The notes beneath the pieces are model-generated. The model had not been told where the DNA came from and did not search any database. It saw only the letters and a program-made list of their open reading frames with translations. From Phaeodactylibacter xiamenensis (GTDB taxonomy: Bacteria; Bacteroidota; Bacteroidia; Chitinophagales; Saprospiraceae), in the NCBI RefSeq assembly GCF_000759025.1, contig NZ_JPOS01000083.1, forward strand, positions 1 through 64,000: DNA of 64,000 nt, in the 5' to 3' direction. The translations under genes and the position numbers were made by a program. This document shows, piece after piece, positions 22,014-34,990 of the stretch; the first letter of the stretch is position 1, and every line of letters starts with the position of its first letter.

Positions 22014-23018
22014 TTAGAACCCTTCCACACCATTTACGGTGGTATACTTAAAGCTCAGCTTTTTATCCGGATTGATCTGCTTGTAAGCGGATTGTACCAT
22101 CAGGGTCGCCTCGTGGAAGCCACAGAGGATAAGCTTAAGCTTGCCAGGGTAAGTGTTGATATCACCAACGGCATAAATGCCCGGCACATTCGTGCTGTAA
22201 TCGAAGGTGTCCACCTCAATGGCATTCTTATCGATATTCAGGCCCCAGTCTGCAATGGGCCCCAGTTTTGGCGAAAGCCCGAAGAGCGGGATAAAATGAT
22301 CCGTAGATTTGACCACCTCGCCTTCCGTTTTGTGCTTGATCACCACGTCGGTGAGTTTGCCATTCCCCTTCAGCCCAACAGCTTGCGCATCGGTCAGCAG
22401 CTTGATGCGGCCCTCTTCTGCCAGTTGGAAAGCCTTCTCCACACTGTCCGGTGCCGCCCGGAATTGCTTGCGGCGGTGAATAAGGGTCACTTCTTCTGCC
22501 ACATCCGCCAGAAAAATGGTCCAGTCCAGCGCACTGTCGCCACCACCGGCTACCACGACTCTCTTGTCCCGGTAATCTTCGGGATTGCGTATGATGTAGT
22601 CCACGCCACGGTCTTCAAATTGTGCCAGGTTACTGATGGGAGGCTTGCGGGGCTCAAAACAGCCCAGCCCTCCCGCAATACAGATCACTGGCGCGTTGAT
22701 TTCCGTTCCCCGGTTGGTCCGTAGGAGGAAAGACTCGTCCTCCAGCCGTTCGATAGTTTCCGCCCGTTCGCCCAGCGTAAAGCCAGGATTGAAAGGCTTG
22801 ATCTGCTCCATGAGGTTGTCCACCAGTTCCTGTGCCAGGATGCTCGGATAACCCGGAATATCATAAATAGGCTTCTTGGGGTATATTTCAGAAAGCTGCC
22901 CGCCCGGCTGTGGCAAAGCATCAACCAGGTGGCAGCGCAGTTTTACCAAACCCGCTTCAAATACCGTAAATAATCCACAGGGCCCAGCCCCAATGATGAG
23001 AATGTCAGTCTGTATCAT
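22014..23018 (-). CDS. FAD/NAD(P) oxidoreductase, thioredoxin reductase / ferredoxin-NADP reductase-like
   Basis: 334 residues from the ATG at 23018, chosen because the FAD-binding motif DILIIGAGPCGLF begins at once; the longer open frame adds 36 unrelated residues. It has a second GxGxxA-type motif (VVVAGGGDSALDW) for NAD(P)H and a C-terminal GDINTYPGKLKLI segment. No CxxC redox pair is visible, so it is the ferredoxin(flavodoxin)-NADP+ reductase type (YumC-like) and not true TrxB. It lies 58 nt behind the APS/PAPS reductase gene in the sulfite-reduction operon and may supply reduced ferredoxin to the siroheme reductase. Confidence 0.85.
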   Translation of the reverse strand: MIQTDILIIGAGPCGLFTVFEAGLVKLRCHLVDALPQPGGQLSEIYPKKPIYDIPGYPSILAQELVDNLMEQIKPFNPGFTLGERAETIERLEDESFLLRTNRGTEINAPVICIAGGLGCFEPRKPPISNLAQFEDRGVDYIIRNPEDYRDKRVVVAGGGDSALDWTIFLADVAEEVTLIHRRKQFRAAPDSVEKAFQLAEEGRIKLLTDAQAVGLKGNGKLTDVVIKHKTEGEVVKSTDHFIPLFGLSPKLGPIADWGLNIDKNAIEVDTFDYSTNVPGIYAVGDINTYPGKLKLILCGFHEATLMVQSAYKQINPDKKLSFKYTTVNGVEGF

Positions 23019-23076
23019 TGATTCCAATTGTCGTGTTCCGTGAAAGAAACACTTTTGCCTAAATAGAGTTTTAACG

Positions 23077-23802
23077 TTATTTACCTTCTTGCACCTGATT
23101 GACAAAGCCGGCAGGGTGCAAACCACATTCGGTCTTGGTTTTGCCCTTCCACCGGCCTGCCCGACCCTGCCCCTTGGCGGTGCAATGCTCGCAGCCTACG
23201 GAACCATACCCCAGCGCTTCAAGCGGATGGCGGGGCAGCTTGTAATAATCCGTGTAAAAGTACCATTCGCCCTCGTCAATGTCGATGAGCGGATTGAACT
23301 TGAGAATGCCATCCTGCTCTTCAAAGACGGCAAGGGATGACCGGTATCCGGTTTGATAAGCCATTAGGCCAGTAATCCAAACCTTATGCTTTGCCTTGAT
23401 CGGCTCAAGTGGCAGCACCTTGTTGACGGCGCAGCATACGTCCGGGTTAGAGTGCCACCACCGTTCCTTTGCTGTGATCTCATTCTGAGCCTGGTCCGGC
23501 AGCACATCAATTACCTTTAGCCTAAACTCATTCGCAATTTGCTCGCGGTATTCCAAAGTTTTCTTGAAATGAAAAGTCGTATTGATAAAATGCACCGGCT
23601 GCTTAGGGCGGAAGCGGGACACCAAGTGCAGCAGCATCACGGAACGGGTGCCGAAAGAAGAGGTGTACAGCACATCCTCCTGCGGAAAGAACCGGCTCAG
23701 CATCAGGAGCCGCTGCTCAAAGGTCAGCGGGGTGAAAATCTTGTTGAGTTGCTTGACGTCAAGTGTTGACCATTGTTGTGTCATATGCGTATGGCTTACC
23801 AT
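23077..23802 (-). CDS. cysH: Assimilatory APS/PAPS reductase, [4Fe-4S] type
   Basis: 241 residues. PP-loop fold with FGTRSVMLLHLVS and, later, the cysteine pairs PDVCC and GCEHC typical of iron-sulfur-containing APS reductases, and the C-terminal catalytic motif KTECGLH. It reduces adenylyl sulfate (or PAPS) to sulfite with thioredoxin. The CC...CxxC set favours APS as substrate. The ATG at 23802 overlaps the stop of the upstream siroheme gene (ATGGTAA), which suggests coupling; an ATG 18 nt later (23784) is also possible. No ATP sulfurylase gene is in the window. Confidence 0.9.
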   Translation of the reverse strand: MVSHTHMTQQWSTLDVKQLNKIFTPLTFEQRLLMLSRFFPQEDVLYTSSFGTRSVMLLHLVSRFRPKQPVHFINTTFHFKKTLEYREQIANEFRLKVIDVLPDQAQNEITAKERWWHSNPDVCCAVNKVLPLEPIKAKHKVWITGLMAYQTGYRSSLAVFEEQDGILKFNPLIDIDEGEWYFYTDYYKLPRHPLEALGYGSVGCEHCTAKGQGRAGRWKGKTKTECGLHPAGFVNQVQEGK

Positions 23803-24398
23803 GTCTGTTGGTTTTGGCGCTCCTCTACGAGCGAGGCTGTCAAATCGTTGAGGGTTTTTACTTTGGTTTCGAAGTCTCCTTTGAGTTGGTCCCGGAAGAC
23901 TTTGAGGTGGCTGAGCAGGGCATCCGTTTCCTCAGGGAGTATAGCTTCCAGCCACTGCCGGAAACGCTTGGCAAAGGTGGGGGACTGCCCGTTGGTGGAA
24001 ATGGCTACTTTCAGGCTGCCGCGGGTCACGATACTGCCGAGGTAGAAATCGCAAAGTGCCGGTGTGTCGGCTACATTGACCAGGGCTCCGTGGGCTTTTG
24101 CGGCGTCACGTACCTGCCGGTTCAAATCTTCAAAGTTCGTTGCGGCAATAACCAGGTCGAAACCTTCTGTGTCTGCCGGTTCAAAGTCTTTTCGAATGAT
24201 ATTGAGGTCAACATCCGGATAATGCTCCAGTAGCTCTGAAACAGGAGGCAGCACCTCTCGGGCCACCACGGTAATATGTGCATCCGGGCTGCTTTTGAGC
24301 AGAAAGGTTAGCTTTTCGCACCCCACCTCTCCGGCACCTACGATGAGCATCTTCAGGCGGTCAAGCTTTAGGAAAACGGGATAGAGCGTATTTTTCAT
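23796..24398 (-). CDS. Siroheme synthase N-domain (precorrin-2 dehydrogenase / sirohydrochlorin ferrochelatase)
   Basis: 200 residues. A Rossmann motif (MLIVGAGEVGCEKL) near residue 17, then IAATNFEDLNRQV and VNVADTPALCDFYLGSIV, as in Met8p and the N-terminal half of CysG. It oxidises precorrin-2 with NAD+ and may insert iron to give siroheme, the cofactor of the reductase encoded two genes upstream. Its ATG shares one base with the preceding cobA stop, so the genes are translationally coupled. Confidence 0.92.
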   Translation of the reverse strand: MKNTLYPVFLKLDRLKMLIVGAGEVGCEKLTFLLKSSPDAHITVVAREVLPPVSELLEHYPDVDLNIIRKDFEPADTEGFDLVIAATNFEDLNRQVRDAAKAHGALVNVADTPALCDFYLGSIVTRGSLKVAISTNGQSPTFAKRFRQWLEAILPEETDALLSHLKVFRDQLKGDFETKVKTLNDLTASLVEERQNQQTW

Positions 24399-25171
24399 CA
24401 GGCGCGTTCTTTTAGGGGTTGTTCGGCAGCGATGGCCTGATAGTTCCAGTTGGGGTGCAGCCGCACGACCTCCCCAAAGACCAAAATGCCGGGACGGGGC
24501 AGTGCCGCTGCTTCAATGAGCGCCGGCAGGGTTGCTGCGGTACCGAGTACGCGCCGTTCATCAGCGGTGGAACCTTTGGAAATGACCATTGCAGGCAGGT
24601 CGGCTTTTCCCTGCTTGATGAATTCCTGCGCGATAGCGGTTGCTTTCCGCATGCCCATGAGGACAATAACGGTTGCTGTAGACTGGGCAGCAAGCGCAAT
24701 ATCTCCGGATAAGCCGCCGGAACGGGTAGTGCCTGTAATGACCCAGAAGCTTTCACTGTAACCACGGCTTGTGGGCGGTACCTGCTGCAATTCCGGAAGC
24801 GCGATGCAGCTGGAAATACCCGGTACGATTTCCACCGGGATGCCTTGTTCCTGTGCGTAGGCGGTTTCTTCCTTGCCTCGCCCGAATACGAAGGCATCAC
24901 CTCCTTTCAGCCGGACAGCATGGCCATGTGCCTTTGCTGATTTTACGAGCAAGGTATTGATTTCCTCCTGCGACATGCGGTGTGCGCCAGCCCGCTTGCC
25001 TACAAAAATGCGGGGCGCTTCGGGGCGGGCGTGATTGAGCAGCCGGGTATCAATTAAGGCATCGTACAGAATGACATCTGCGGTGCGCAGCGCCCGGGCG
25101 CCTTTCAGCGTGAGCAGCTCCGGATCGCCCGGGCCGGCACCTACCAATGTGATCTTAGGTTCTTTGTTCAT
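24398..25171 (-). CDS. cobA: Uroporphyrinogen-III C-methyltransferase
   Basis: 257 residues, a SUMT: VGAGPGDPELLTLKGARAL at the N-terminus, YDALID, RLKGGDAFVFGRG, PGISS and VILMGM-type SAM-binding motifs (TVIVLMGM). It methylates uroporphyrinogen III twice to precorrin-2, the first step to siroheme. Here SUMT and the CysG-N activities are separate genes, unlike the fused E. coli CysG. Three bases separate it from the upstream reductase gene. Confidence 0.94.
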   Translation of the reverse strand: MNKEPKITLVGAGPGDPELLTLKGARALRTADVILYDALIDTRLLNHARPEAPRIFVGKRAGAHRMSQEEINTLLVKSAKAHGHAVRLKGGDAFVFGRGKEETAYAQEQGIPVEIVPGISSCIALPELQQVPPTSRGYSESFWVITGTTRSGGLSGDIALAAQSTATVIVLMGMRKATAIAQEFIKQGKADLPAMVISKGSTADERRVLGTAATLPALIEAAALPRPGILVFGEVVRLHPNWNYQAIAAEQPLKERA

Positions 25172-25174
25172 GGC

Positions 25175-27307
25175 TCAGGCTTTGTAGTAGTTATCGACAA
25201 CGAGCTTATCCTGACCAGCTTCCTTGAGTTGTGCCTCCCGCACGGCAATGACGCGTTTGCGGAAGGATTGCGCTTTTTTTAGGTAAGTGGCCGCAAATTC
25301 AGGAGTAGGTGCCTGCTCTTTCATTTCCAGTACAAAGGCTTCAAAGTCTTCGGTCAGCGCCGGGAAATCGTTGGTGGCGATATAGTGCTCCTGGAAGTCT
25401 TTCAGGATTTTCCGATGGGTATTGCAATTGACATCCCTGGCGAGCAGCAGCGCTTTGGCACCGATAATCATGCTGGTGTAGGCATGGTAGATGCCATCCG
25501 CGAAAGCTTCTGCGTCGATGGCTTCCTCTGCCAGTTGGTACTTCACCTGAGCTTCGCCCAAAATGGTCCCAATCACATCGAGGGTAACACCAGCGCATTC
25601 TCCGACGCCAATTTCCTGACGGTAGGCCTCGTCCTGCCCCCAGTCAAAGTAGTCCTCAGCGATCAGGTTATCCGTTTCTGCCAGAGGCTTGAGCAGGGTG
25701 TAGAAGTAGCGCTTCCCCTGTTCCTGAAAGTATTTATTGAATCGTTGCCCGGTCGTGCTGTTTGACTGGAAATCATCAAGCAGGGTCCGGAGCGCCTGCG
25801 GGATGCGCTTTGTAGGCAATTTTATGACCTTCTGGGCGATGAAGCCTTCGCCCTCAGGAGAGACACCTCCGCCCAACACAACCTGCATCGCTGGCAGCAC
25901 CTGCGCACCGGTTTTTATGGAGCTGCCATGCAAGCCAATTTGCGCGGCCATATGCTGCCCGCAGGAATTCATGCAGCCGCTGATTTTTATCCGGATATCG
26001 CTGGTCTCCAGCAATTCTTCGTATTCTTCCAGTAAGACTTGCTCCAGTTTTGAGGCCAGCCCGGTGCTGTTGGTGACGCCTAATGCACAGGTGTCAGTAC
26101 CCGGGCAGGAGGTTATATCCGCGATGCTGTCCGCGCCGAGGTCTGCCAGTCCCAGCGCCTGTAGCCCGTTGTAGAGGTAAGGCAGGGCCTCCGGGCGGAC
26201 AAAACGCAGCAACAATCCCTGTTGTACCGTTATCCGGATGTCATCGGCAGCATAAGCTTTGACGAGATCGGCCAGCGGGCGGGCAACACGGGCGTGAATG
26301 TCTCCGCGTGGTACTTTTACCTGCACGCCGTAAAATCTTTCCTGTTTCTGGCGGAAAGTATTCAGGACCAGCCAGCGTTGGTAGTGAGCCTGATCCTTAA
26401 TTTCAGGACGCCCCTGGGGTGCATCAGGCAGAAGTACCTCTTCTTCCTCCGGGACTATCGGGACAGACTGCTGAGGCAGGCTGGGCCATTCTTCCTTTGC
26501 CAGCTTCATGAATGCCTCAACGCCCATTTTCTTAATCAGAAACTTCATACGGGCTTTCATCCGCTTTTCGCGTTCTCCGTAGCGGTCAAATACCCGGATG
26601 CAGGCTTCCATGAAGGGGATAATCTGGTCGTCTGGCAGGAATTCGTAAACAGTTTGGGCAATGGCACCTACGGCACCGAGCCCGCCACCAATGACCACCT
26701 TAAACCCCCGGCGCAATTCGCCTCCGTGTTCCCGCAGACGGGGGATGAAGCCAAAGTCATGGAAATAGGTATAGGCAGAGTCCCGCTCGCTGGAAGAAAA
26801 GGCAGGCTTGATTTTACGCCCCATTTCCTGGCAAATCGGGTTGCGCAGGAAGTATTCGAAAGTCGCCTGTACATAAGGTGCCACATCAAAAGGCTCTTCC
26901 GGATCAATGCCAGCTGTGGGAGAAGCCGTAATGTTGCGTACGGTATTCCCGCAGGCTTCCCGGGCGGTCAGGCCTGCCGCTGCCAGGTCTTCCCAGATTA
27001 GCGGCGAATCGCTAAGCTTGACAAAATGCATTTGCACATTCTGCCGGGTAGTCAGGTGAAGGTTCCCGTTGGTATAGCGCTCCGAGATATCGGCAAGGGC
27101 TTTGAGCTGAGCGGTAGTAATTTTGCCGTAGGGTATCTTGGTGCGGAACATCTGCACCCCAAATTGCCGCTGCCCGTAAACACCGCGGGTCAGGCGGTAC
27201 AGCTTGAAGCGTTCTTCATCTTCTTTTCCGGAATAGAAGCCATCGATCCGTTGCTTCAGTTCCTCAATATCTTTGTGGTCTTCAGTGGGTATAGTTGTAG
27301 CAGGCAT
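25175..27307 (-). CDS. Siroheme sulfite/nitrite reductase with C-terminal HEPN-like extension
   Basis: 710 residues from the ATG at 27307; a TTG two codons upstream is also open. Residues about 1-500 carry the two-fold ferredoxin-like plus siroheme/[4Fe-4S] domains: NVQMHF and TASPTAGIDPEEPFD near the N-terminus, and cluster cysteines in CPGTDTCALG and SGCMNSCGQH (CX5C ... CX3C). The last 170 or so residues (from about LAETDNLIAEDYF) form an all-helical extension recalling HEPN domains in Bacteroidota relatives. Sulfite is the likelier substrate, because the neighbours make APS reductase and siroheme. Nitrite cannot be excluded. First full-length gene of the operon, behind a Cys-rich leader. 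Confidence 0.88.
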   Translation of the reverse strand: MPATTIPTEDHKDIEELKQRIDGFYSGKEDEERFKLYRLTRGVYGQRQFGVQMFRTKIPYGKITTAQLKALADISERYTNGNLHLTTRQNVQMHFVKLSDSPLIWEDLAAAGLTAREACGNTVRNITASPTAGIDPEEPFDVAPYVQATFEYFLRNPICQEMGRKIKPAFSSSERDSAYTYFHDFGFIPRLREHGGELRRGFKVVIGGGLGAVGAIAQTVYEFLPDDQIIPFMEACIRVFDRYGEREKRMKARMKFLIKKMGVEAFMKLAKEEWPSLPQQSVPIVPEEEEVLLPDAPQGRPEIKDQAHYQRWLVLNTFRQKQERFYGVQVKVPRGDIHARVARPLADLVKAYAADDIRITVQQGLLLRFVRPEALPYLYNGLQALGLADLGADSIADITSCPGTDTCALGVTNSTGLASKLEQVLLEEYEELLETSDIRIKISGCMNSCGQHMAAQIGLHGSSIKTGAQVLPAMQVVLGGGVSPEGEGFIAQKVIKLPTKRIPQALRTLLDDFQSNSTTGQRFNKYFQEQGKRYFYTLLKPLAETDNLIAEDYFDWGQDEAYRQEIGVGECAGVTLDVIGTILGEAQVKYQLAEEAIDAEAFADGIYHAYTSMIIGAKALLLARDVNCNTHRKILKDFQEHYIATNDFPALTEDFEAFVLEMKEQAPTPEFAATYLKKAQSFRKRVIAVREAQLKEAGQDKLVVDNYYKA

Positions 27308-27343
27308 GGTCAAACTTTTTGGGTTTGGTCAATAGCATTTTAG

Positions 27344-27366
27344 GGGCAATCGGTTCCAATTAGCCC
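27344..27366 (-). promoter_or_regulatory. Hairpin between leader peptide and sulfite reductase gene
   Basis: On the minus strand GGGC(T)AAT pairs with ATTGCCC around an 8-nt loop, with one bulged T. A second small stem, CAAAC/GTTTG, lies next to the reductase start (27310-27328). No clear T-run follows, so this is not an obvious intrinsic terminator. It could act with Rho, or block the ribosome site. Confidence 0.3.
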
Positions 27367-27407
27367 GGCAATTTGGTTTGAAAATTCAGCAGGGAAAGAA
27401 TCGTGAA

Positions 27408-27509
27408 TCAGAGGGTAGGGCAGGAGCAACAACAACATCGCATTCGCAGATGCCGCCGGAACATCTCGTGGCTCATCATAGCTTGCATGGTATATTGCTT
27501 TTGTTTCAT
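27408..27509 (-). CDS. Cysteine-rich leader peptide of the sulfite-reduction operon
   Basis: A short open frame of 33 codons from the ATG at 27509, or 22-26 from downstream ATGs at 27488, 27479 or 27476. It ends ... FRRHLRMRCCCCSCPTL and then TGA. Codons are TGT TGT TGT TGC TCC TGC across the Cys run at 27420-27437. It lies 100 nt before the sulfite reductase start, in the same direction, right behind a consensus promoter. By analogy with amino-acid leader peptides (His, Trp, Leu operons) and the Cys-containing leaders of actinobacterial sulfur genes, ribosome stalling at scarce Cys-tRNA would raise operon expression. The sequence is directly visible. The regulatory role is inference. The predicted transcript start falls almost on the first ATG, so the 27479/27476 pair is the more likely start. 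Confidence 0.75.
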   Translation of the reverse strand: MKQKQYTMQAMMSHEMFRRHLRMRCCCCSCPTL

Positions 27510-27513
27510 AGTG

Positions 27514-27544
27514 CAAGTATACAGCCTTACTCCGAATAAAACAA
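27514..27544 (-). promoter_or_regulatory. Promoter of the leader / sulfite-reduction operon
   Basis: On the minus strand: TTG (27544-27542), 20-nt spacer, TATACTTG (27521-27514), one mismatch from TAnnTTTG. Transcription would begin near 27505-27509, at the leader peptide. The rest of the gap up to 27696 is AT-rich with no other feature that I see. Confidence 0.65.
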
Positions 27545-27696
27545 TACTAATCCGATAGGAATTTAGTTAAATGGATTTTTGATTCTGTCAATCAGTTGAA
27601 TTACAGCAGTTTAGGGTTAATTTTTTCTTTTCTAAAAGGACTTTTCAGGACCAAAAAAGCGGAGTCTGGAATTTAAAAAGAAAGGAGAGGGATAAA

Positions 27697-27732
27697 AAAA
27701 GCTGTACCGGGAGGCTTCCCGGTACAGCTTTT
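27697..27732 (-). terminator. Strong intrinsic terminator of the SprB-repeat gene
   Basis: A perfect 16-bp stem (AAAAGCTGTACCGGGA with TCCCGGTACAGCTTTT) and 4-nt loop, followed on the minus strand by a T-rich tail. It is 25 nt past the stop and would also stop plus-strand read-through. Confidence 0.92.
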
Positions 27733-27757
27733 AATATACTAAAGCTAACAAATTCGC

Positions 27758-30700
27758 TTACTTCTTCGTCAGTTTCAGGACTTTAACGCCTGACTTGCTG
27801 TAGTTCAGCTTAACGAAGTAGGTGCCGGATGGCAGTTGTTTTACATCCAGTTCCAGTTGCTGCGCATCGGGTGCCAGCTGCTGTGAATAGATGACATTGC
27901 CCTGAACACCCAAGAGTTCTACTGTTACGGATTCCCCGAAGGTTTCAAATAGCTCGAGTGTAGCCACTTCTTCGGCAGGGTTCGGATAAAGCAGCGCAAT
28001 TTCCGAATCTCCGTAGAGGATTGCTTCGGCCTCTTCAGAGTAGAAGATATCACCCTGTGGGTTTTCAATCCGCAGTCGGTAGAGGTTGCGGCCGCGCTTG
28101 GCGTTATCATGCATTTGCTCGTAGTAGTTCATTACACCAAGGTAGGCAGAGGGCTCTTCTACGGTCGCAATTTCCACAAATCGTTCTCCGCCATCAGCAG
28201 AGTGTTCGACGGTGTAGGTATGATCCTGAATAAACTCTTCCGTCATCCAGCTGACCATGACTTCTCCGTCCACCTCATTGGTGACTTCTGCGGTGAGCGG
28301 CATCGGCGAACCACAGTATAACGGGCTGTTGGTTGCAGTAATGGTCTCGATATCCGTGGAAGTACACCCATTCTCGGTCACCTGCAGCGTAATGGTGAAG
28401 GAACCGTGTGAGGAAGCCGTAACGCTAACCTGTGGGCCTGTTGCACTTTGTGGGCTGAGCCCCGGGCTAAAGGACCACTGAATTTGAGCATTAGCACCAG
28501 TTGGGCCTGCAAAGAAGGTCGTTGGCTCATCCACACAGATGAAGTCGGGACCATTGATGTCCGCTACAGCCACATTACCTACTTCAATAGTAACGATGTT
28601 GCTTTCAAGGTATACAATACAGCATTCCCGGCGGGCACAGCGTGCAAAGTAAGTGGTTTCAGAAAGTGGCCCCGGATCATAAGAGTCTCCGGTAGCGCCT
28701 GGGATGATTTGCCAGGTCTGAAGGTTGAATGGCCCGGCAATAGTACTTTGCATCCACAGGTATTCTATGGCACCACTACCACCTGATGGTGATTCGATAT
28801 TGATGATGGGGTCTGGGTCGTTGCCAGGACCGCACAGGAACTGGTTTGGACCAATGAGCCCCGGATCGTCGATGTTGTCACACTTGGTGTAAAGACCGGC
28901 ATCAACAGTCAGGTTAGAATCTCCTGCATTGATAACGTAGATACCTGTCATACCCATGAGGGTGTCGGCGTCGCTGTCAAGTGCATCGTCCACCCCTTGG
29001 TTAGGAGCAGTGAAGACCAGGCCTCCCGGTGCAATAAACTGTACTTTGTACTCGCCCGGATCTACATTGAAGAGGTAGAAGCCATTGGCATCTGTGAACA
29101 TCGTATCGATATTGATCGGGTCATTTTCAGCAGGAATCTGCAGGATGACCATCACGCCTTCGATGCCCTGTTCGTTCGGGTCCTGAATGCCATCGCGGTC
29201 TTCATCCAGCCAGACATAGTCGCCAAGCTGAGCCGGTGGTGCAATCGTTACCATACAAGTCGTTTCACAGCCGTTAGCATCGGTGACGGTTGCGGTGTAG
29301 TCGCCGGAAGCAAGGCCGGTTGCGGTCTCCGTGGTTTGGCCATCACTCCAGAGGTAAGTGTAAGGTGCTGTGCCTCCTGTGACCGTAATAGTTGCTTCAC
29401 CATCGTTGCCAGCCGTGGAGATAGGGCTCGTTACTTCAATAGAGCAGGATGGAGCAGGGAAGGCATTCACGTCAATGCTCGCCGTAGCCGTACACTCTGC
29501 AATATCAGTAACCGTGACGGTGTAGGTACCTGCCGGCAGGTTAGAAATAGAAGGTGTTGTTGCACCATTGCTCCACTCGTAGAAGAACGGAGGCGTACCT
29601 CCCGTTGCGCTAACGCTTACAGCACCATCGGTTGTATTCTCACAAGTATTGCCTACATCGGCAGAGATGTTGAGGTCAATCGCTTCTGGCTCATTAATTT
29701 CCACGGTAAGGACATCTGCACAATCGTTAGCATCGGTGACTGTTACGGTGTAAGTTCCGGCGGACAGGTTGGTAGCCGTTGGCGTGGTTTGACCATCACT
29801 CCACTCGTAGGTGAAGGGCATGGTGCCGCCGGTTACTTCCACACTGGCCTGGCCATCAGACAAACCATTACAGCTAACGTCCTCCGTCATAGAGGAGGAT
29901 ATGGAAGCAATTAATTCTTCCGGCTGTGCTACGCCTACAATTGCTGTTCCGGTACAACCGGCATCATCGGTTACGGTAACTTCGTAAATGCCTGCCGGGA
30001 TGTCAATAAGTTCCGGCGTGGTGCTGCCCGTGTTCCACTGATAGGAGAACGGTGGCGTACCACCGGAAACAGAGACTGCTGCTGCACCGGTTGATTCGCC
30101 AAAGCACTGTGGCGAAGTGGCGATCGGTGTCAGGCTCAGGCTTGGGAATGCGTTTATGGTGACCGAAGACATGGCTGTACATTCGTTCAGGTCTGTTACC
30201 GTAACGGTGTACTGGCCAGGCTGAAGGCCATCAATGGTAGCCGTTGTTTCACCATTGCTCCACTCGTAGGTGTAAGCAGGCGTACCGCCGGTTACCACAG
30301 CCGTGATAGAACCCGTGCCATCGTCGTCACAGAAAATGTCCGTTTTATTAAGTGTGATATTGATGGGGTCTGGCTCAGCTACGGTAGCTTCTGCCGTTGC
30401 GGTACAGCCCTCAATATCGGTTACCGTTACGGAGTAAGTACCAGCGGGCACGCCCATGAGGTCCGGAGTGCCGGCGCCGTTGCTCCACTCGAAGTTGTAA
30501 GGCATATTTCCTCCGGAAACAGTGGTCATCACTGCACCGAGCATATCTCCATTACAAGGATTGTTTTGTACATCAAGGCTCAGCTCTATCGCTTCCGGCT
30601 CATTGATAATGGCAGTGTCGGAAGTTTCGCAGAAGTTGGCATCCCGCACTGTAACGATAAGCGTGTCCGGTCCTGAGAGTCCGGTAATAGTGTTGGAAAC

Positions 30701-33700
30701 GACTTCATTGCCATCTACAAAGATCGTGTAGCTGGCATCATTGCCTCCTGATACATTAATAATGACCTGCCCATCGCCCGCATTTGCGCAGGTAACGTCA
30801 GTCACATCGAGGTCAAGTTCAAGCAATGGTGGCTCGCCGATTGTTACGGTTTCGGATAGCGTACAATCGTTGGCATCCGTGACAGTCAGGCTGTATTGCC
30901 CTGCCGGCAGGTTAATCAGCTCGCTGAGCGTATCGCCGGTAGACCATTCATACGAGTAGGGTGCGGTACCGCCCTCAGCAGTCACCAAAATACTGCCGGT
31001 ATTATCACCGTTGCAGAGCACGTCTCTTGGCACTACTGTAATGGAAAAGTCTTCAATGACCTCAATAAAGATTTCCTCTACCTTCGTACAGCCGTTGGCA
31101 TCCGTCACCGTAACGGAATAAGTGCCTTCAGGGAGGTTTTCAATATTGGTATCGGACTCACCGGTGCTCCACTCGTAGGTGTAAGGTGGCAGTCCGCCTA
31201 TAGCCTCTACAGAAGCTTCGCCGGTATTGCCAGCTCCGCAAACCACCTCGGGGGCATCTACATTGATGTCGAGTTCAGGCGCTTCTTCAATAGTTACCGT
31301 TGCCGTGGCTTCACATTCGTTGACATCGGTAACAGTGACAGTGTAAGTGCCAGCACCAAGGCCGGTAATCATTTGTGTGGTGGCACCGGTGCTCCATTCA
31401 TAAGTGTAGGGAGGCGTGCCGCCACTTGCCATTGCCATGGCTGTTCCGTTCATGTCGCCGGGGCAAACCAGCCCGCCGGCATTCGCATCTACCTGTATTT
31501 CGGTAGGCTGAGAAATAACAAAGGTCTGAGAAGCCGTACAGCCGTTTTCATCCGTTACCGTAACGCTGTAGAAGCCTGCGGGGACGCCCAGAATAGCAGG
31601 CGCCATAGATCCGTTATTCCACTGATAGGTATAAGGAGGGGTGCCGCCGGTGGGGTTAGCTGTTGCTTCGCCTGTGCCGTCTGCGAAGCAAAGAAGGTTT
31701 TTGCTTGTACCGTTGACGGCAAGGTCATCGCTTACATCAATGGTGAAGGACGTATCGTCTGTACAGCCATTAGCATCCGTGACCGTAACGCTGTAGGTTC
31801 CTGCACCCAGGTTCATAATGGTTTGGCTGGTCGCGCCGGTGCTCCACACGTAGGTAAACGGTGGTGTGCCTGATGTAGACATGGCGGTGAGCATACCATC
31901 TGTCTCAGAACCACATACAATGTCCGTTCCGGTAATTACAGCCGTAACGCCATCGTATTCACCGATTTCAACGGATTTTGCGGCCTGGCAGCCGTTAGCG
32001 TCGGTGATGGTAACCGTGTAAGTGCCTGCACCTAAGCCGGTAATCATTTGAGTTATCGCTCCTGTATTCCACTCGTAAGTATAAGGAGGCGTTCCTCCCA
32101 TACCTACAGCCATGGCTGTTCCGGTAAACTCGCCCGGGCATACCTCAACTGTGGCATTGATCGTTGCTACCAGGGTAGGAGGGTCTGCCAATACAAAGTT
32201 TTCGATGAGCTGGCATCCGTTCTGATCCGTGACGGTAACGCTATAGTTGCCAGCTCCAATATTTTCAAGCAGCGGGGTACCGGTCACACCGTTGCTCCAC
32301 TGATAAATGTAAGGCGGTGTGCCACCCCAGCCTTCAGCCAGGATGCTACCGTTTTCATCACCGGGGCAGAGCGGATTGGTGACGATGATATCCAGAATGA
32401 AATCATCTACGATGTCAATGTCAATTTCATCCACGGCAGTACAGCCCAGTGCATCCGTTACTGTTACACTGTAGGAACCTTCGGGCAGGTTGGCAATAGC
32501 CTGTGTGATTGCCCCTGTGCTCCATTGATAACTGTAAGGCGGGTTTCCGCCGGAAGCCATAGCGGTCGCAAGCCCTTCGCCTTCCGGGTCACAAATGGTT
32601 TCATCTCCACTGATCACCACAATGAGCTCTGATGCTTCCTCGATAACAACCGCTGCGAGGTCTTCACATCCGTTAGCATCTGTCACGGTCACTGTATAAG
32701 TTCCTGCGCTTAGTCCTGTGATCATTTGAGTCGTGGCACCGGTATTCCACAGATAGGTATACGGAGGCGTTCCGCCGCTGGCCATCGCCATCGCCATGCC
32801 CGTTGTTTCGCCGGGGCACAATTCCTGAGTCGCTGAAATATCTGCCACTACAGCTGGTGGGTCAACCAGCGTGAAGTTTTCAATGAGCTGACAACCGTTC
32901 TGGTCCGTGACGGTCACGCTATAGTTGCCTGCGCCGATGTTTTCAAGCAGTGGGGTGCCGGTAACGCCATTACTCCACTGATAAATGTAAGGAGGAGTGC
33001 CTCCCCAACCTTCAGCAAGGATGCTGCCGTTTTCGTCTTCCGGGCAGAGTGGGTTGGTTACAATAATGTCAAGAATAAAGTCATCCACAATTTCAATGTC
33101 AATAGACTCGATTGCAGTACAACCAAGGGCATCAGTCACCGTAACGGTGTAGGTGCCTTCCGGCAGGTTGCCAATGGAAGCAGCAAAGCTGCCGTTGCTC
33201 CAGTTATAGGTAAACGGGGGGGTACCGCCAATTGGAGTGGCAGTGGCAAATCCTTCGCCTTCCGGATCGCAAACGGTTTCGTCTCCGCTGATGGTTACGC
33301 CAAGGCTTGGTGCAGCTTCAATAACCACCGTGGCAACATCCTGACACATCGCGGCATCCGTTACGGTAACCGTATAGGTGCCTGCGCCCAGGCCCGTAAT
33401 TTGCTGAGTAGTCTCTCCTGTGCTCCAGAGATAGTTGAATGGAGCCGTGCCACCTGAAACAGTTGCAGTGGCTGTGGAGGTATTCTCACCCAGGCAAACG
33501 GTAGACTCAGAGGTAATGACGGAAACAATCAGGTTAGGTGGAGTGTCGATCATCACCGCATCGGTAGCTGTACAGCCATTCACATCGGTAACCGTTACCA
33601 TATATACACCACCGGGAAGGTTGGAAATCGTCTGAGTCGTCGCACCCGTGCTCCACTGATAGGTGAATGGACCCGCTCCATCGGTGACAGAAACAGTTGC

Positions 33701-34990
33701 AGAGCCGTTTGTGCCATCACAGACTGTAACGTCGCTTCCAATGATCGTAATTTCAAGATTTGTAGCAGCCATAATTATGGTAGAAGCGACATCCTGACAC
33801 CCCTGCGCATCCGTAACCGTGACGGCATACACACCCGGTGCCAGACCGGAAATTGTTTGGGTAGTCGCACCATTGCTCCAGCTGTAGGAAACCGGCTGCA
33901 CACCACCTACCGGGAATGCTGTAATGGACCCGTCATTCTGATCAGGGCAGCTCTCGTCGTTCTTTTGCAGGGATACATTCAGGTTAGACAAAGGAGCGAT
34001 GACTACATTATCTACGGCAATACAGCCGTTGGCATCCGTAACTGTTACAGAATAGCCCCCGGGAACAAGCCCTGCTATGGAAGTAGTCGTTGCACCGGTA
34101 CTCCACAGATAGCTGTATGGCAGGGTGCCACCTGAAGCAACTACGGAGGCAGAGCCGTTGTCGTCACCCACACAGACCGGGTTTTGCCCGGTTGCATTGG
34201 CAAATAGAGCGGGCGGTTCAATCACGGTGCCTGAGCCTACCGCCTGACAGCCTTCACTGTCTGTTAAGGTAACGGTATAGGTGCCAGGAGCAAGGCCACT
34301 GATGGAGGCAGTGGTTGCACCAGTATTCCAAAGATAGGAGAAAGGAGGGGTGCCTCCAATTGGTGTCGCGGTGATCTGCCCGTTGTTGTCGCCCGGGCAG
34401 GTGATATTGTTGACATTAACATTTACATCCAGAGGCGTGAAATCAACGGTTATACACTCCACTGCACCGCACAGGTCCTGATCGGTCATTGTGACACAAT
34501 AGGTGCCTGCTCCCGGAACAGTAATGGTCGAACCGTTTTGTCCTGTATTCCAGTTGTAATTGTAAGGTGATTCTCCACCGCTGCCTGTTGCCGTAATGGT
34601 GATAGGCAATGTGCAATTATCAGCTGTGATATCTACATTGACCAAATCCGGCTGGGTTACTGTAACATTCTTAATGGCGGAATTATTGGAGGCATCCACC
34701 ACAGTAACGGTGTAAGTGCCAGCTGTAACCCCGGAAAGTACCGGCCCTACCGCACCTGTGTTCCAGGTATAGCTGTAAGGGGCGTTCCCTCCGGAAGCGG
34801 TTGCCGTAACGCTACCGTTCGGTTGGCCAAAACAGGCAGGTTCAGTGACCTGAAAGTCAACTGTGATCTGCGCCTGTAAGACTTGAAAGGAAAGCAGGAA
34901 GAGCGGTAGCATTAGAATAATGCGGTTTTTGGGGCTCTTCAGCTTACACAACAAACTTGTGCGAATGGAAGATGGTAAAATTCTTTGCAT
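27758..34990 (-). CDS. Giant SprB-repeat surface protein with T9SS sorting domain
   Basis: 2410 residues. An N-terminal signal segment (IILMLPLFLLSFQVLQAQ) is followed by about 25 SprB repeats of 70-80 residues (pattern CxGxxxGxaxaxxxGGTPPYtYxWsxGattxxixxLxaGxYxVTVTDxxGC, residues about 40-1915). Next come an SdrD/Cna-B-like domain (about 1920-2030; YVWLDEDRDGIQDPNEQG), a PKD/Ig-like domain (about 2140-2215), an FN3-like stretch and a T9SS type A sorting domain (about 2330-2410). SprB of Flavobacterium johnsoniae is the mobile gliding adhesin. Proteins with these repeats are often large adhesins, so adhesion or motility is a fair guess, not shown. Preceded by a 1-kb gene-free stretch. Confidence 0.92.
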   Translation of the reverse strand: MQRILPSSIRTSLLCKLKSPKNRIILMLPLFLLSFQVLQAQITVDFQVTEPACFGQPNGSVTATASGGNAPYSYTWNTGAVGPVLSGVTAGTYTVTVVDASNNSAIKNVTVTQPDLVNVDITADNCTLPITITATGSGGESPYNYNWNTGQNGSTITVPGAGTYCVTMTDQDLCGAVECITVDFTPLDVNVNVNNITCPGDNNGQITATPIGGTPPFSYLWNTGATTASISGLAPGTYTVTLTDSEGCQAVGSGTVIEPPALFANATGQNPVCVGDDNGSASVVASGGTLPYSYLWSTGATTTSIAGLVPGGYSVTVTDANGCIAVDNVVIAPLSNLNVSLQKNDESCPDQNDGSITAFPVGGVQPVSYSWSNGATTQTISGLAPGVYAVTVTDAQGCQDVASTIIMAATNLEITIIGSDVTVCDGTNGSATVSVTDGAGPFTYQWSTGATTQTISNLPGGVYMVTVTDVNGCTATDAVMIDTPPNLIVSVITSESTVCLGENTSTATATVSGGTAPFNYLWSTGETTQQITGLGAGTYTVTVTDAAMCQDVATVVIEAAPSLGVTISGDETVCDPEGEGFATATPIGGTPPFTYNWSNGSFAASIGNLPEGTYTVTVTDALGCTAIESIDIEIVDDFILDIIVTNPLCPEDENGSILAEGWGGTPPYIYQWSNGVTGTPLLENIGAGNYSVTVTDQNGCQLIENFTLVDPPAVVADISATQELCPGETTGMAMAMASGGTPPYTYLWNTGATTQMITGLSAGTYTVTVTDANGCEDLAAVVIEEASELIVVISGDETICDPEGEGLATAMASGGNPPYSYQWSTGAITQAIANLPEGSYSVTVTDALGCTAVDEIDIDIVDDFILDIIVTNPLCPGDENGSILAEGWGGTPPYIYQWSNGVTGTPLLENIGAGNYSVTVTDQNGCQLIENFVLADPPTLVATINATVEVCPGEFTGTAMAVGMGGTPPYTYEWNTGAITQMITGLGAGTYTVTITDANGCQAAKSVEIGEYDGVTAVITGTDIVCGSETDGMLTAMSTSGTPPFTYVWSTGATSQTIMNLGAGTYSVTVTDANGCTDDTSFTIDVSDDLAVNGTSKNLLCFADGTGEATANPTGGTPPYTYQWNNGSMAPAILGVPAGFYSVTVTDENGCTASQTFVISQPTEIQVDANAGGLVCPGDMNGTAMAMASGGTPPYTYEWSTGATTQMITGLGAGTYTVTVTDVNECEATATVTIEEAPELDINVDAPEVVCGAGNTGEASVEAIGGLPPYTYEWSTGESDTNIENLPEGTYSVTVTDANGCTKVEEIFIEVIEDFSITVVPRDVLCNGDNTGSILVTAEGGTAPYSYEWSTGDTLSELINLPAGQYSLTVTDANDCTLSETVTIGEPPLLELDLDVTDVTCANAGDGQVIINVSGGNDASYTIFVDGNEVVSNTITGLSGPDTLIVTVRDANFCETSDTAIINEPEAIELSLDVQNNPCNGDMLGAVMTTVSGGNMPYNFEWSNGAGTPDLMGVPAGTYSVTVTDIEGCTATAEATVAEPDPINITLNKTDIFCDDDGTGSITAVVTGGTPAYTYEWSNGETTATIDGLQPGQYTVTVTDLNECTAMSSVTINAFPSLSLTPIATSPQCFGESTGAAAVSVSGGTPPFSYQWNTGSTTPELIDIPAGIYEVTVTDDAGCTGTAIVGVAQPEELIASISSSMTEDVSCNGLSDGQASVEVTGGTMPFTYEWSDGQTTPTATNLSAGTYTVTVTDANDCADVLTVEINEPEAIDLNISADVGNTCENTTDGAVSVSATGGTPPFFYEWSNGATTPSISNLPAGTYTVTVTDIAECTATASIDVNAFPAPSCSIEVTSPISTAGNDGEATITVTGGTAPYTYLWSDGQTTETATGLASGDYTATVTDANGCETTCMVTIAPPAQLGDYVWLDEDRDGIQDPNEQGIEGVMVILQIPAENDPINIDTMFTDANGFYLFNVDPGEYKVQFIAPGGLVFTAPNQGVDDALDSDADTLMGMTGIYVINAGDSNLTVDAGLYTKCDNIDDPGLIGPNQFLCGPGNDPDPIINIESPSGGSGAIEYLWMQSTIAGPFNLQTWQIIPGATGDSYDPGPLSETTYFARCARRECCIVYLESNIVTIEVGNVAVADINGPDFICVDEPTTFFAGPTGANAQIQWSFSPGLSPQSATGPQVSVTASSHGSFTITLQVTENGCTSTDIETITATNSPLYCGSPMPLTAEVTNEVDGEVMVSWMTEEFIQDHTYTVEHSADGGERFVEIATVEEPSAYLGVMNYYEQMHDNAKRGRNLYRLRIENPQGDIFYSEEAEAILYGDSEIALLYPNPAEEVATLELFETFGESVTVELLGVQGNVIYSQQLAPDAQQLELDVKQLPSGTYFVKLNYSKSGVKVLKLTKK
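32181..33298 (-). repeat. 678-nt internal duplication of three SprB repeats
   Basis: About 440 nt at 32181-32620 is repeated at 32859-33298 with a constant offset of 678 nt (226 codons, three SprB repeats). Encoded blocks such as IVDDFILDIIVTNPLCP and GSILAEGWGGTPPYIYQW are identical, while third positions differ in many places. This copy pair is older than the near-identical repeat at the window start. Confidence 0.8.

What the first reader, a model, noticed from the sequence alone, without database searches (positions are those of the whole stretch)
27408..27544. Cys-run leader peptide ahead of a sulfite-reduction operon: likely cysteine-sensing attenuator
A 22-33 codon frame ending FRRHLRMR-CCCCSC-PTL lies 100 nt ahead of the siroheme sulfite reductase, behind a near-consensus promoter. 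Five of six successive codons are Cys, and the operon's product pathway ends in cysteine. The layout mirrors classical amino-acid leader peptides. Actinobacteria have Cys leaders before sulfur genes; I know of no described counterpart in this phylum, though I cannot search. The predicted +1 is at or near the first ATG, so the real start is probably one of the ATGs at 27479 or 27476. No intrinsic terminator is obvious between leader and reductase, so the switch might use Rho or translational coupling.
Basis: partly seen in the sequence, partly recalled or inferred. Interest (0 to 1): 0.88.

Follow-up and report, generated by a model that had tools for sequence, protein, structure and literature searches.

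The report
Cysteine-sensing leader peptides before sulfur genes
A tiny gene whose message holds a run of cysteine codons sits just ahead of the sulfite-reduction genes and recurs, with very different flanking sequence, in many relatives, so it probably lets the ribosome sense cysteine shortage and switch sulfur assimilation on.

Summary
The frame is real: minus strand 27509-27408, 33 codons ending RCCCCSCPTL, 100 nt ahead of the sulfite reductase gene, behind a Bacteroidota-type promoter. It is not chance: of 85 comparable sir genes (44 genera), 76 have a Cys-run short ORF within 600 nt upstream (antisense 2, shuffles 3); the rest of the peptide is not conserved. In relatives 106 of 118 such leaders are followed by an intrinsic terminator whose 5' arm co-varies with the stretch just after the Cys codons. 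That is classical ribosome-mediated attenuation tuned to cysteine, with two leaders in 41 of 77 leader-bearing loci. A cysteine-synthase gene has the same device; metY has a second form, Cys run at the stop codon, started 2-12 nt after a SAM riboswitch, also in the window's own genome. The window's copy is derived: terminator and antiterminator are missing and the Cys run sits near the stop, so its output (Rho-type or translational) is open. Ten full-text searches showed me no Cys leader in this phylum. No expression data exist here.

The parts
27408..27509 (-). Leader-peptide ORF, 33 codons, ...FRRHLRMRCCCCSCPTL*; true start uncertain (ATGs at 27509, 27488, 27464, 27443 conserved in two sister genomes)
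27420..27437 (-). Regulatory codon run TGT TGT TGT TGC TCC TGC (Cys Cys Cys Cys Ser Cys)
   Evidence: the five Cys are kept in L002 and L003, with one synonymous TGT>TGC change in L003
27514..27521 (-). Promoter -7 element TATACTTG
   Evidence: motif class enriched ahead of first leaders, 57 of 75 vs 2.3 in shuffles
27542..27544 (-). Promoter -33 element TTG, 20-nt spacer
27546..27567 (-). Imperfect palindrome ACTAAATTCCTATCGGATTAGT next to the -33 element, possible repressor site; the 26-mer holding it is the only hit in the genome within 3 mismatches
   Evidence: similar sequence in L004-L006
27344..27366 (-). Hairpin GGGCTAATTGGAACCGATTGCCC (-8.9 kcal/mol), kept in L002/L003, no U-tract; perhaps the remnant of a terminator
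25175..27307 (-). sir: siroheme/4Fe-4S nitrite-sulfite reductase family protein (ORF listed from TTG 27313)
24398..25171 (-). Uroporphyrinogen-III C-methyltransferase (siroheme synthesis)
23796..24398 (-). Siroheme synthase N-terminal domain protein
23077..23802 (-). cysH, (phospho)adenylyl-sulfate reductase
22014..23126 (-). Pyridine-nucleotide oxidoreductase, thioredoxin-reductase-like; reductase partner of sir is my guess
27694..27731 (-). Terminator-like hairpin with T-run after the upstream 2410-aa gene, between it and the leader promoter
   Evidence: sequence (by eye; the scan did not list it)

Best explanation
It is a cysteine-sensing leader-peptide attenuator of the sulfite-reduction operon and belongs to a large Bacteroidota set. 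Ribosomes translate the short ORF while RNA polymerase is still nearby. With enough Cys-tRNA they pass the Cys codons and stop; with too little they stall in the run, and that favours expression of sir. In most relatives the switch is classical: a stalled ribosome leaves the stretch about 15-28 nt after the last Cys codon free to pair with the 5' arm of the terminator (antiterminator), whereas a ribosome at the stop codon covers it and the terminator forms. In the window's copy terminator and antiterminator are gone and the Cys run ends 9 nt before the stop, so my first choice for its output, at modest confidence, is Rho-type: a ribosome stalled beside the stop shields the C-rich, G-poor RNA that Rho would bind. 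Shown by comparison: ORF, frame, Cys conservation, linkage to sir, terminator and antiterminator in relatives. Inferred: stalling, response to cysteine, and Rho in the window.
For: 76 of 85 main-type sir loci with >=300 nt upstream carry a uORF with at least 3 Cys in 5 residues; antisense 2, dinucleotide shuffles 3.0. Runs of four Cys in short ORFs: 69 of 95 loci in sense, 0 antisense, 0 in 20 shuffles per locus. Frame test: of 108 runs 107 have an in-frame ATG in the Cys frame, 26 in the Leu frame, 6 in the Ala/Val frame. 106 of 118 leaders are followed by an intrinsic terminator, a median 57 nt after the last Cys codon; counting only hairpins of -14 kcal/mol or better 102 of 118 against 2.3 in shuffles. 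Antiterminator: 105 tested, mean z -1.56, 47 at p<=0.05; own pairing beats cross-genus pairing in 86 of 105, -10.5 vs -7.8 kcal/mol, p 3e-15, one per genus (37) p 4e-7. Same device at a cysteine-synthase gene: 21 of 28 loci, 34 of 38 leaders with terminator. Window: the two 100-column blocks from leader ORF to sir start are 88 and 90% identical in three genomes, the block ahead of the promoter block 50%; C over G in the 70 nt after Cys, mean 0.129 in 6 terminator-less sir leaders; rho gene present.
Against: The window's copy has no terminator, and its hairpin does not pair with the post-Cys stretch (p 0.77), so it fails the classical model. The C>G signal rests on 6 leaders, 5 of one genus, and is absent in terminator-less metY leaders (0.012). 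The sir start is predicted to pair with the leader ORF, which would also fit a translational switch. 9 of 85 main-type sir loci lack the leader (L012, L112, L119, L124 of genus g7; L086, L089, L127, L141, L142). The antiterminator is individually significant in only 47 of 105, and at the loose -7 kcal/mol limit shuffles give 26 of 118 terminators. No expression, ribosome-profiling or mutant data.
Confidence: 0.8

Rival explanations
1. The window's leader is a relic: terminator and antiterminator decayed and control passed to a repressor acting at the palindrome beside the -33 element.
For: No U-tract terminator in 5 of 6 genus members and no antiterminator in the three tested; a 22-bp palindrome conserved at the promoter and unique in the genome; several other Sir loci in the phylum sit beside an Rrf2-like regulator gene instead of a Cys leader.
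Against: The leader region stays 88-90% identical while the block ahead of the promoter has drifted to 50%; Cys runs persist in L005 and L006 although the rest of the peptide differs; L004 has palindrome and terminator together.
Confidence: 0.2
2. The output in the window is translational: ribosomes on the leader change access to the sir start or couple sir translation to the leader.
For: Mycobacterial polycysteine ORFs are cited as translation attenuators (PMC13236596, passage); no terminator in the window; in the predicted ensemble of the whole leader the sir AUG pairs with the leader ORF (best partners, probability 0.41-0.44 in L001, 0.55 in L002, 0.77 in L003) and is freer when only the post-Cys RNA is folded.
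Against: The pairing lies upstream of the Cys run, behind a stalled ribosome, and differs in position between L001 and its sisters; the 100-nt gap is long for direct coupling.
Confidence: 0.2
3. A functional cysteine-rich microprotein (metal or sulfide binding) encoded next to sir.
For: Translated-looking frame; Cys clusters can bind metals (general knowledge).
Against: I see nothing but the Cys run shared between genera; run length varies; a terminator follows 106 of 118; no family match for the window peptide and only one below-cut-off, compositional hit (streptolysin-S family model) among three others.
Confidence: 0.04
4. Chance TGY repeat, or a Leu-codon leader read in another frame.
For: TGY repeats also read as Leu (YTG) or Ala/Val in other frames; four-Leu runs appear in 63 of 95 loci.
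Against: Frame test 107 vs 26 vs 6 of 108; four-Cys runs absent antisense and in shuffles.
Confidence: 0.01

Closest known systems
Polycysteine leader ORFs of Actinobacteria (predicted by Seliverstov et al. 2005, PMC1262725, cysteine section read; tested by Canestrari et al. 2020, not held, known from citing passages)
   Same: Short ORFs with Cys runs ahead of sulfur/cysteine genes; in the 2005 paper the Cys runs lie near the stop and no conserved terminator was found, as in the window and at metY.
   Different: Different phylum and promoters; no match to a curated peptide family; most Bacteroidota sir and cysteine-synthase copies have an intrinsic terminator, with antiterminator support overall, and are often in pairs.
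Classical trp/his-type ribosome-mediated transcription attenuators (recalled)
   Same: Regulatory codon run, terminator, and mutually exclusive antiterminator with matching spacing in relatives.
   Different: Amino acid is cysteine; often two copies in series; the window's own copy lacks terminator and antiterminator.
Salmonella mgtCBR tandem attenuators (PMC3641672, title and abstract start in listing)
   Same: Two leader ORFs in series control one operon.
   Different: There the two ORFs sense different signals (recalled); here both carry Cys runs.
B12 riboswitch with uORF in M. tuberculosis (PMC11260477, abstract and outline)
   Same: A riboswitch and a translated uORF share one 5' leader; translation of one uORF is needed for the downstream gene.
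   Different: Here the riboswitch is SAM-I and the uORF ends in Cys codons.
E. coli tnaC Rho-dependent attenuation (recalled; cited in PMC1262725)
   Same: Stalling beside the stop could mask a Rho site, as proposed for the window's copy.
   Different: tnaC stalls on excess tryptophan through its nascent peptide (recalled); here stalling would follow lack of charged tRNA.

Membership tests
Classical ribosome-mediated transcription attenuator | Short ORF with a run of codons for the pathway's end product | tested here: met
Classical ribosome-mediated transcription attenuator | Intrinsic terminator between leader and first gene, in the window | tested here: not met
Classical ribosome-mediated transcription attenuator | Intrinsic terminator, in related leaders | tested here: met
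   106 of 118 sir leaders (shuffle control); 34 of 38 cysteine-synthase leaders
Classical ribosome-mediated transcription attenuator | Alternative antiterminator pairing, in the window | tested here: not met
   p 0.77
Classical ribosome-mediated transcription attenuator | Alternative antiterminator pairing, in relatives | tested here: met
   as a set; individually p<=0.05 in 47 of 105
Classical ribosome-mediated transcription attenuator | Expression responds to cysteine through leader translation | not testable with these tools
   needs reporter or RNA-seq
Actinobacterial polycysteine uORFs | Poly-Cys short ORF upstream of a sulfur operon | tested here: met
Actinobacterial polycysteine uORFs | Membership of a curated Cys-rich leader peptide family | tested here: not met
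   no NCBIfam match to the window peptide; none above cut-off for three others
Actinobacterial polycysteine uORFs | Leaderless short ORF | tested here: inconclusive
   four bases lie between the -7 box and the first ATG, near the expected +1; no transcript start known
Rho-dependent (tnaC-like) attenuator | C-rich, G-poor untranslated stretch after the leader stop | tested here: inconclusive
   C 21, G 11 in the 70 nt after the last Cys codon; only 6 leaders in the class
Rho-dependent (tnaC-like) attenuator | Rho present | tested here: met
   633.9 bits, cut-off 509
SAM-I riboswitch RF00162 | Aptamer in the window's sir leader | tested here: not met
   L001, no Rfam match
SAM-I riboswitch RF00162 | Aptamer ahead of metY Cys leaders | tested here: met
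   21 of 22 metY loci with a Cys leader, including the window's genome; the other (L362) is cut by its contig start

The most novel reading that the evidence does not exclude
Saprospirales and some Cytophagales run cysteine and methionine supply through a nested set of leader peptides: classical Cys attenuators, often in pairs, ahead of sir and cysteine synthase, and ahead of metY (or a ferredoxin - PLP enzyme - sir operon) a SAM riboswitch whose 3' end abuts the start of a Cys leader, so that SAM controls whether the leader is translated and cysteine controls how it ends. That would be a serial two-metabolite gate in one mRNA leader. The window's sir leader would be a terminator-less, Rho-type offshoot.
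Probability: 0.5. Interest if true: 0.9.

Novelty: new variant of a known kind. Interest (0 to 1): 0.78.

Why it matters
Cysteine-sensing leaders were predicted in Actinobacteria without conserved terminators, leaving their mechanism open. A terminator-based version with a co-varying antiterminator, often in pairs, makes the question testable in another phylum. The SAM riboswitch joined to a Cys leader would be a natural two-input sensor. It also suggests how sulfur assimilation is controlled in part of the Bacteroidota, through short ORFs that automated annotation may well miss (not checked here).

Tried and rejected
Tried without gain: generic promoter/terminator scan of 27000-28000 (nothing). 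Rfam on 12 sir loci: no match. Scan of the own genome for TGY runs: 29 places with 5 or more, of which one lay in a short ATG ORF by my in-frame check (L071, ahead of a 166-aa ORF not identified), so raw TGY runs are mostly not leaders. Of 20 stretches fetched around 6-Cys runs in nine relatives two were recognisable sulfur-gene leaders (L195 cysteine synthase, L211 metY). No conserved structure found after 17 metY leaders. Substitution counts in three sister genomes were uninformative.

Rejected: Leu leader, chance repeat, microprotein (see rivals). A classical attenuator for the window itself. On checking, I withdrew an earlier view that the sir start lies outside any helix: one search shows it pairing with the leader ORF, so the translational rival was raised to 0.2 and the main confidence set to 0.8.

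Rows dropped: sir fragments without a start (L019; G178, G166 and G076; second segments of split genes); L153 and L155 for under 300 nt upstream. L153 is an SFRTE-type sir WITH a Cys leader and terminator, against the 0 of 10 counted for that type in the family. One L017 ORF was excluded from leader counts because it ends about 650 nt from sir without a terminator. Only the best 30 metY places and the 28 cysteine-synthase places were examined; of the phylum search the upstream DNA of L214-L240 was examined, plus places already held. In one search two of 80 loci had 3 nt or less upstream.

Full report
What is there. On the minus strand of the window an ATG frame runs from 27509 to 27408 and reads MKQKQYTMQAMMSHEMFRRHLRMRCCCCSCPTL. 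Its stop lies 100 nt ahead of the likely ATG of a sulfite/nitrite reductase family gene (27307), which is followed on the same strand by two siroheme-synthesis genes, cysH and a thioredoxin-reductase-like oxidoreductase. A Bacteroidota-type promoter (consensus recalled) ends four bases before the first ATG. Among 1219 short ORFs of 10-60 codons in the window it is the only one with five Cys in six codons.

Is it more than chance. I collected sir genes from relatives (18 of 59 genomes have one; 93 of 248 family genomes; both counts include the window's own genome) and read the upstream DNA of 97 loci. Of 95 loci with at least 300 nt upstream, 85 are of the main Sir type and 76 of these carry a short ORF with three Cys in at most five residues within 600 nt (40 of 44 genera); the same test gives 2 of 85 antisense and 3.0 of 85 in dinucleotide shuffles. 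Runs of four Cys in short ORFs occur in 69 of the 95 loci in sense, none antisense, none in 20 shuffles per locus. Leu runs also appear in 63 loci because TGY repeats read as YTG in another frame; the frame test settles this: of 108 runs, 107 have an in-frame ATG in the Cys frame, 26 in the Leu frame and 6 in the Ala/Val frame, and 107 of 108 have a stop within 60 nt in the Cys frame. Outside the Cys run I see nothing shared between the peptides of different genera. Nine main-type loci lack a leader. The second Sir type (N-terminus SFRTE) has none in 10 counted family loci, but L153, left out for short flank, has one, and Pontibacter loci, whose Sir I take to be of this type from the sequence, have one too.

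How the relatives work. Of 118 leaders in 77 sir loci, 106 are followed by a hairpin with a U-tract, a median 57 nt after the last Cys codon; 41 loci have two leaders and 36 one. The limit used there (-7 kcal/mol) is loose: shuffles of the same stretches give 26 of 118; but at -14 kcal/mol it is 102 of 118 against 2.3. The stretch after the Cys run is complementary to the 5' arm of the terminator: 105 tested, mean z -1.56, 47 with p<=0.05, in which the pairing spans nt 15-28 after the last Cys codon (medians). Own pairing is better than the mean pairing with arms of other genera in 86 of 105 (-10.5 vs -7.8 kcal/mol, p 3e-15; one per genus, 37, p 4e-7), so the two sides have changed together. 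The leader stop ends a median 30 nt after the Cys run. This is the geometry of classical attenuation: a ribosome stalled at Cys leaves the antiterminator strand free; a ribosome at the stop covers it. Stalling itself is inferred.

More genes. A cysteine-synthase-like gene has Cys leaders in 21 of 28 loci, 38 leaders (two in 17 loci), 34 with terminator. metY (O-acetylhomoserine sulfhydrylase) has a different form: in 22 of the 30 loci examined an ATG leader ends with the Cys run at or next to its stop codon, and 4 of 20 such leaders have a terminator-like site, no more than the loose limit gives by chance. An RF00162 SAM riboswitch lies ahead in 23 of the 30 metY loci, 21 of them with the Cys leader (association Fisher p 3e-4). 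In all 21 an in-frame ATG lies 2-12 nt after the end of the aptamer match. The window's own genome has this arrangement at metY (L371...VHPLMRCCMCCC*). Five Cytophagales loci (L254-L257, L261: three Fulvivirga species, Cesiribacter andamanensis and a Flammeovirgaceae MAG) have a SAM riboswitch and a Cys leader at the start of an operon of ferredoxin, a Cys/Met-metabolism PLP enzyme and sir, and four of them (not L261) a further Cys uORF directly before sir (enzyme identities by my reading of the sequence).

Spread. In the named genome set (80 loci, some of them the same genomes as the unnamed ones) I count Cys uORFs before sir, within 1 kb or at the operon start, in 27, from Saprospiraceae to Fulvivirga, Cesiribacter, Flexithrix, Marinoscillum, Pontibacter and Botryobacter; short Cys matches in L263, L297, L309 and L315 were not counted. 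None in the Lewinella/Neolewinella, Chitinophaga, Pedobacter, Mucilaginibacter (bar the uncounted L315), Larkinella, Runella or Dyadobacter loci (my count from its listing). Of 27 loci read from the phylum search, L215 and L217 (genomes already counted) have leaders and L224 and L230 only short Cys matches. Several loci without a leader have an Rrf2-like regulator gene or a cysN-like gene upstream (Rrf2 match 23.5 bits with a 35-residue fragment, below the cut-off of 30).

The window's own copy. It lacks the U-tract terminator, as do 5 of 6 members of its genus, itself included (L004 keeps one). The remaining hairpin at 27366-27344 is kept in two sister genomes but does not pair with the post-Cys stretch (p 0.77). 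The Cys run ends 9 nt before the stop (3 and 0 nt in L005 and L006), like the metY form. Over all three genes a Cys run within 12 nt of the stop goes with lack of a terminator (Fisher p 1.5e-5, related rows, so indicative). The RNA after the Cys run has C well over G (mean 0.129 in 6 terminator-less sir leaders, -0.009 in 106 with terminator), and the genome has rho, so a Rho-type output is my first choice, at modest confidence; metY leaders do not show the C bias. A translational output is not excluded: in the folded ensemble of the whole leader the sir AUG pairs with the leader ORF (best-partner probability 0.41-0.77 in three genomes). From leader ORF to sir start the three genomes are 88-90% identical while the block ahead of the promoter is 50% identical, which speaks against decay.

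Literature. Ten full-text searches, of which I saw the best-ranked listings only, showed no Cys leader in Bacteroidota. Seliverstov et al. 2005 (PMC1262725, cysteine section and passages) predicted Cys-run leaders in Actinobacteria near the stop codon, without conserved terminators, and weakly suggested Rho. The F. psychrophilum transcriptome paper (PMC9723704, one section and passages) notes leader-peptide attenuation upstream of amino-acid operons without naming cysteine there; the B. thetaiotaomicron map (PMC7366714, passages) notes short ORFs reminiscent of leader peptides. Supplements of neither were read. Canestrari et al. 2020 is not held; Lopatovskaya et al. 2010, seen only as a reference, could contain earlier predictions.

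Verdict. The finding is real and larger than first seen. It works like an amino-acid leader-peptide attenuator for cysteine; the window's member is a derived one whose output is still open.

Noticed in passing
L371:1158-1276 and downstream (G000:C3, ahead of metY at about 109890): In the window's own genome a SAM-I riboswitch (78.4 bits) is followed 11 nt later by an in-frame ATG of a leader ORF ending MRCCMCCC*, ahead of metY.
   Followed up: yes
window 27546-27567, minus strand: Palindrome ACTAAATTCCTATCGGATTAGT lies next to the -33 element; unique in the genome and similar in other genus members; possible repressor operator.
   Followed up: partly
L216, L224, L229, L230, L277, L284, L287, L300, L307, L308: In these sir loci an Rrf2-like regulator gene (by sequence likeness; one fragment tested) lies upstream; apart from short Cys matches in L224 and L230 they have no Cys leader. 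Perhaps a swap of control systems.
   Followed up: partly
window 27758-34990, minus strand: A 2410-aa repeat-rich protein with many YSVTVTD-type repeats, by my reading, lies just upstream of the leader promoter.
   Followed up: no
L071 (G000:C35:20973, minus): A short ORF ending RLCCCCC* lies 343 nt ahead of a 166-aa ORF that I did not identify.
   Followed up: no
loci with two leaders and two terminators (sir, cysteine synthase): The first leader has a shorter Cys-to-stop distance (median 13.5 nt) than the second (30 nt), in 39 of 50 loci; reason unknown.
   Followed up: no
sir leaders versus sir genes, 40 loci: Leaders use TGT more than the sir coding sequence does (TGT:TGC 223:133 vs 156:184, p 1e-5).
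   Followed up: no
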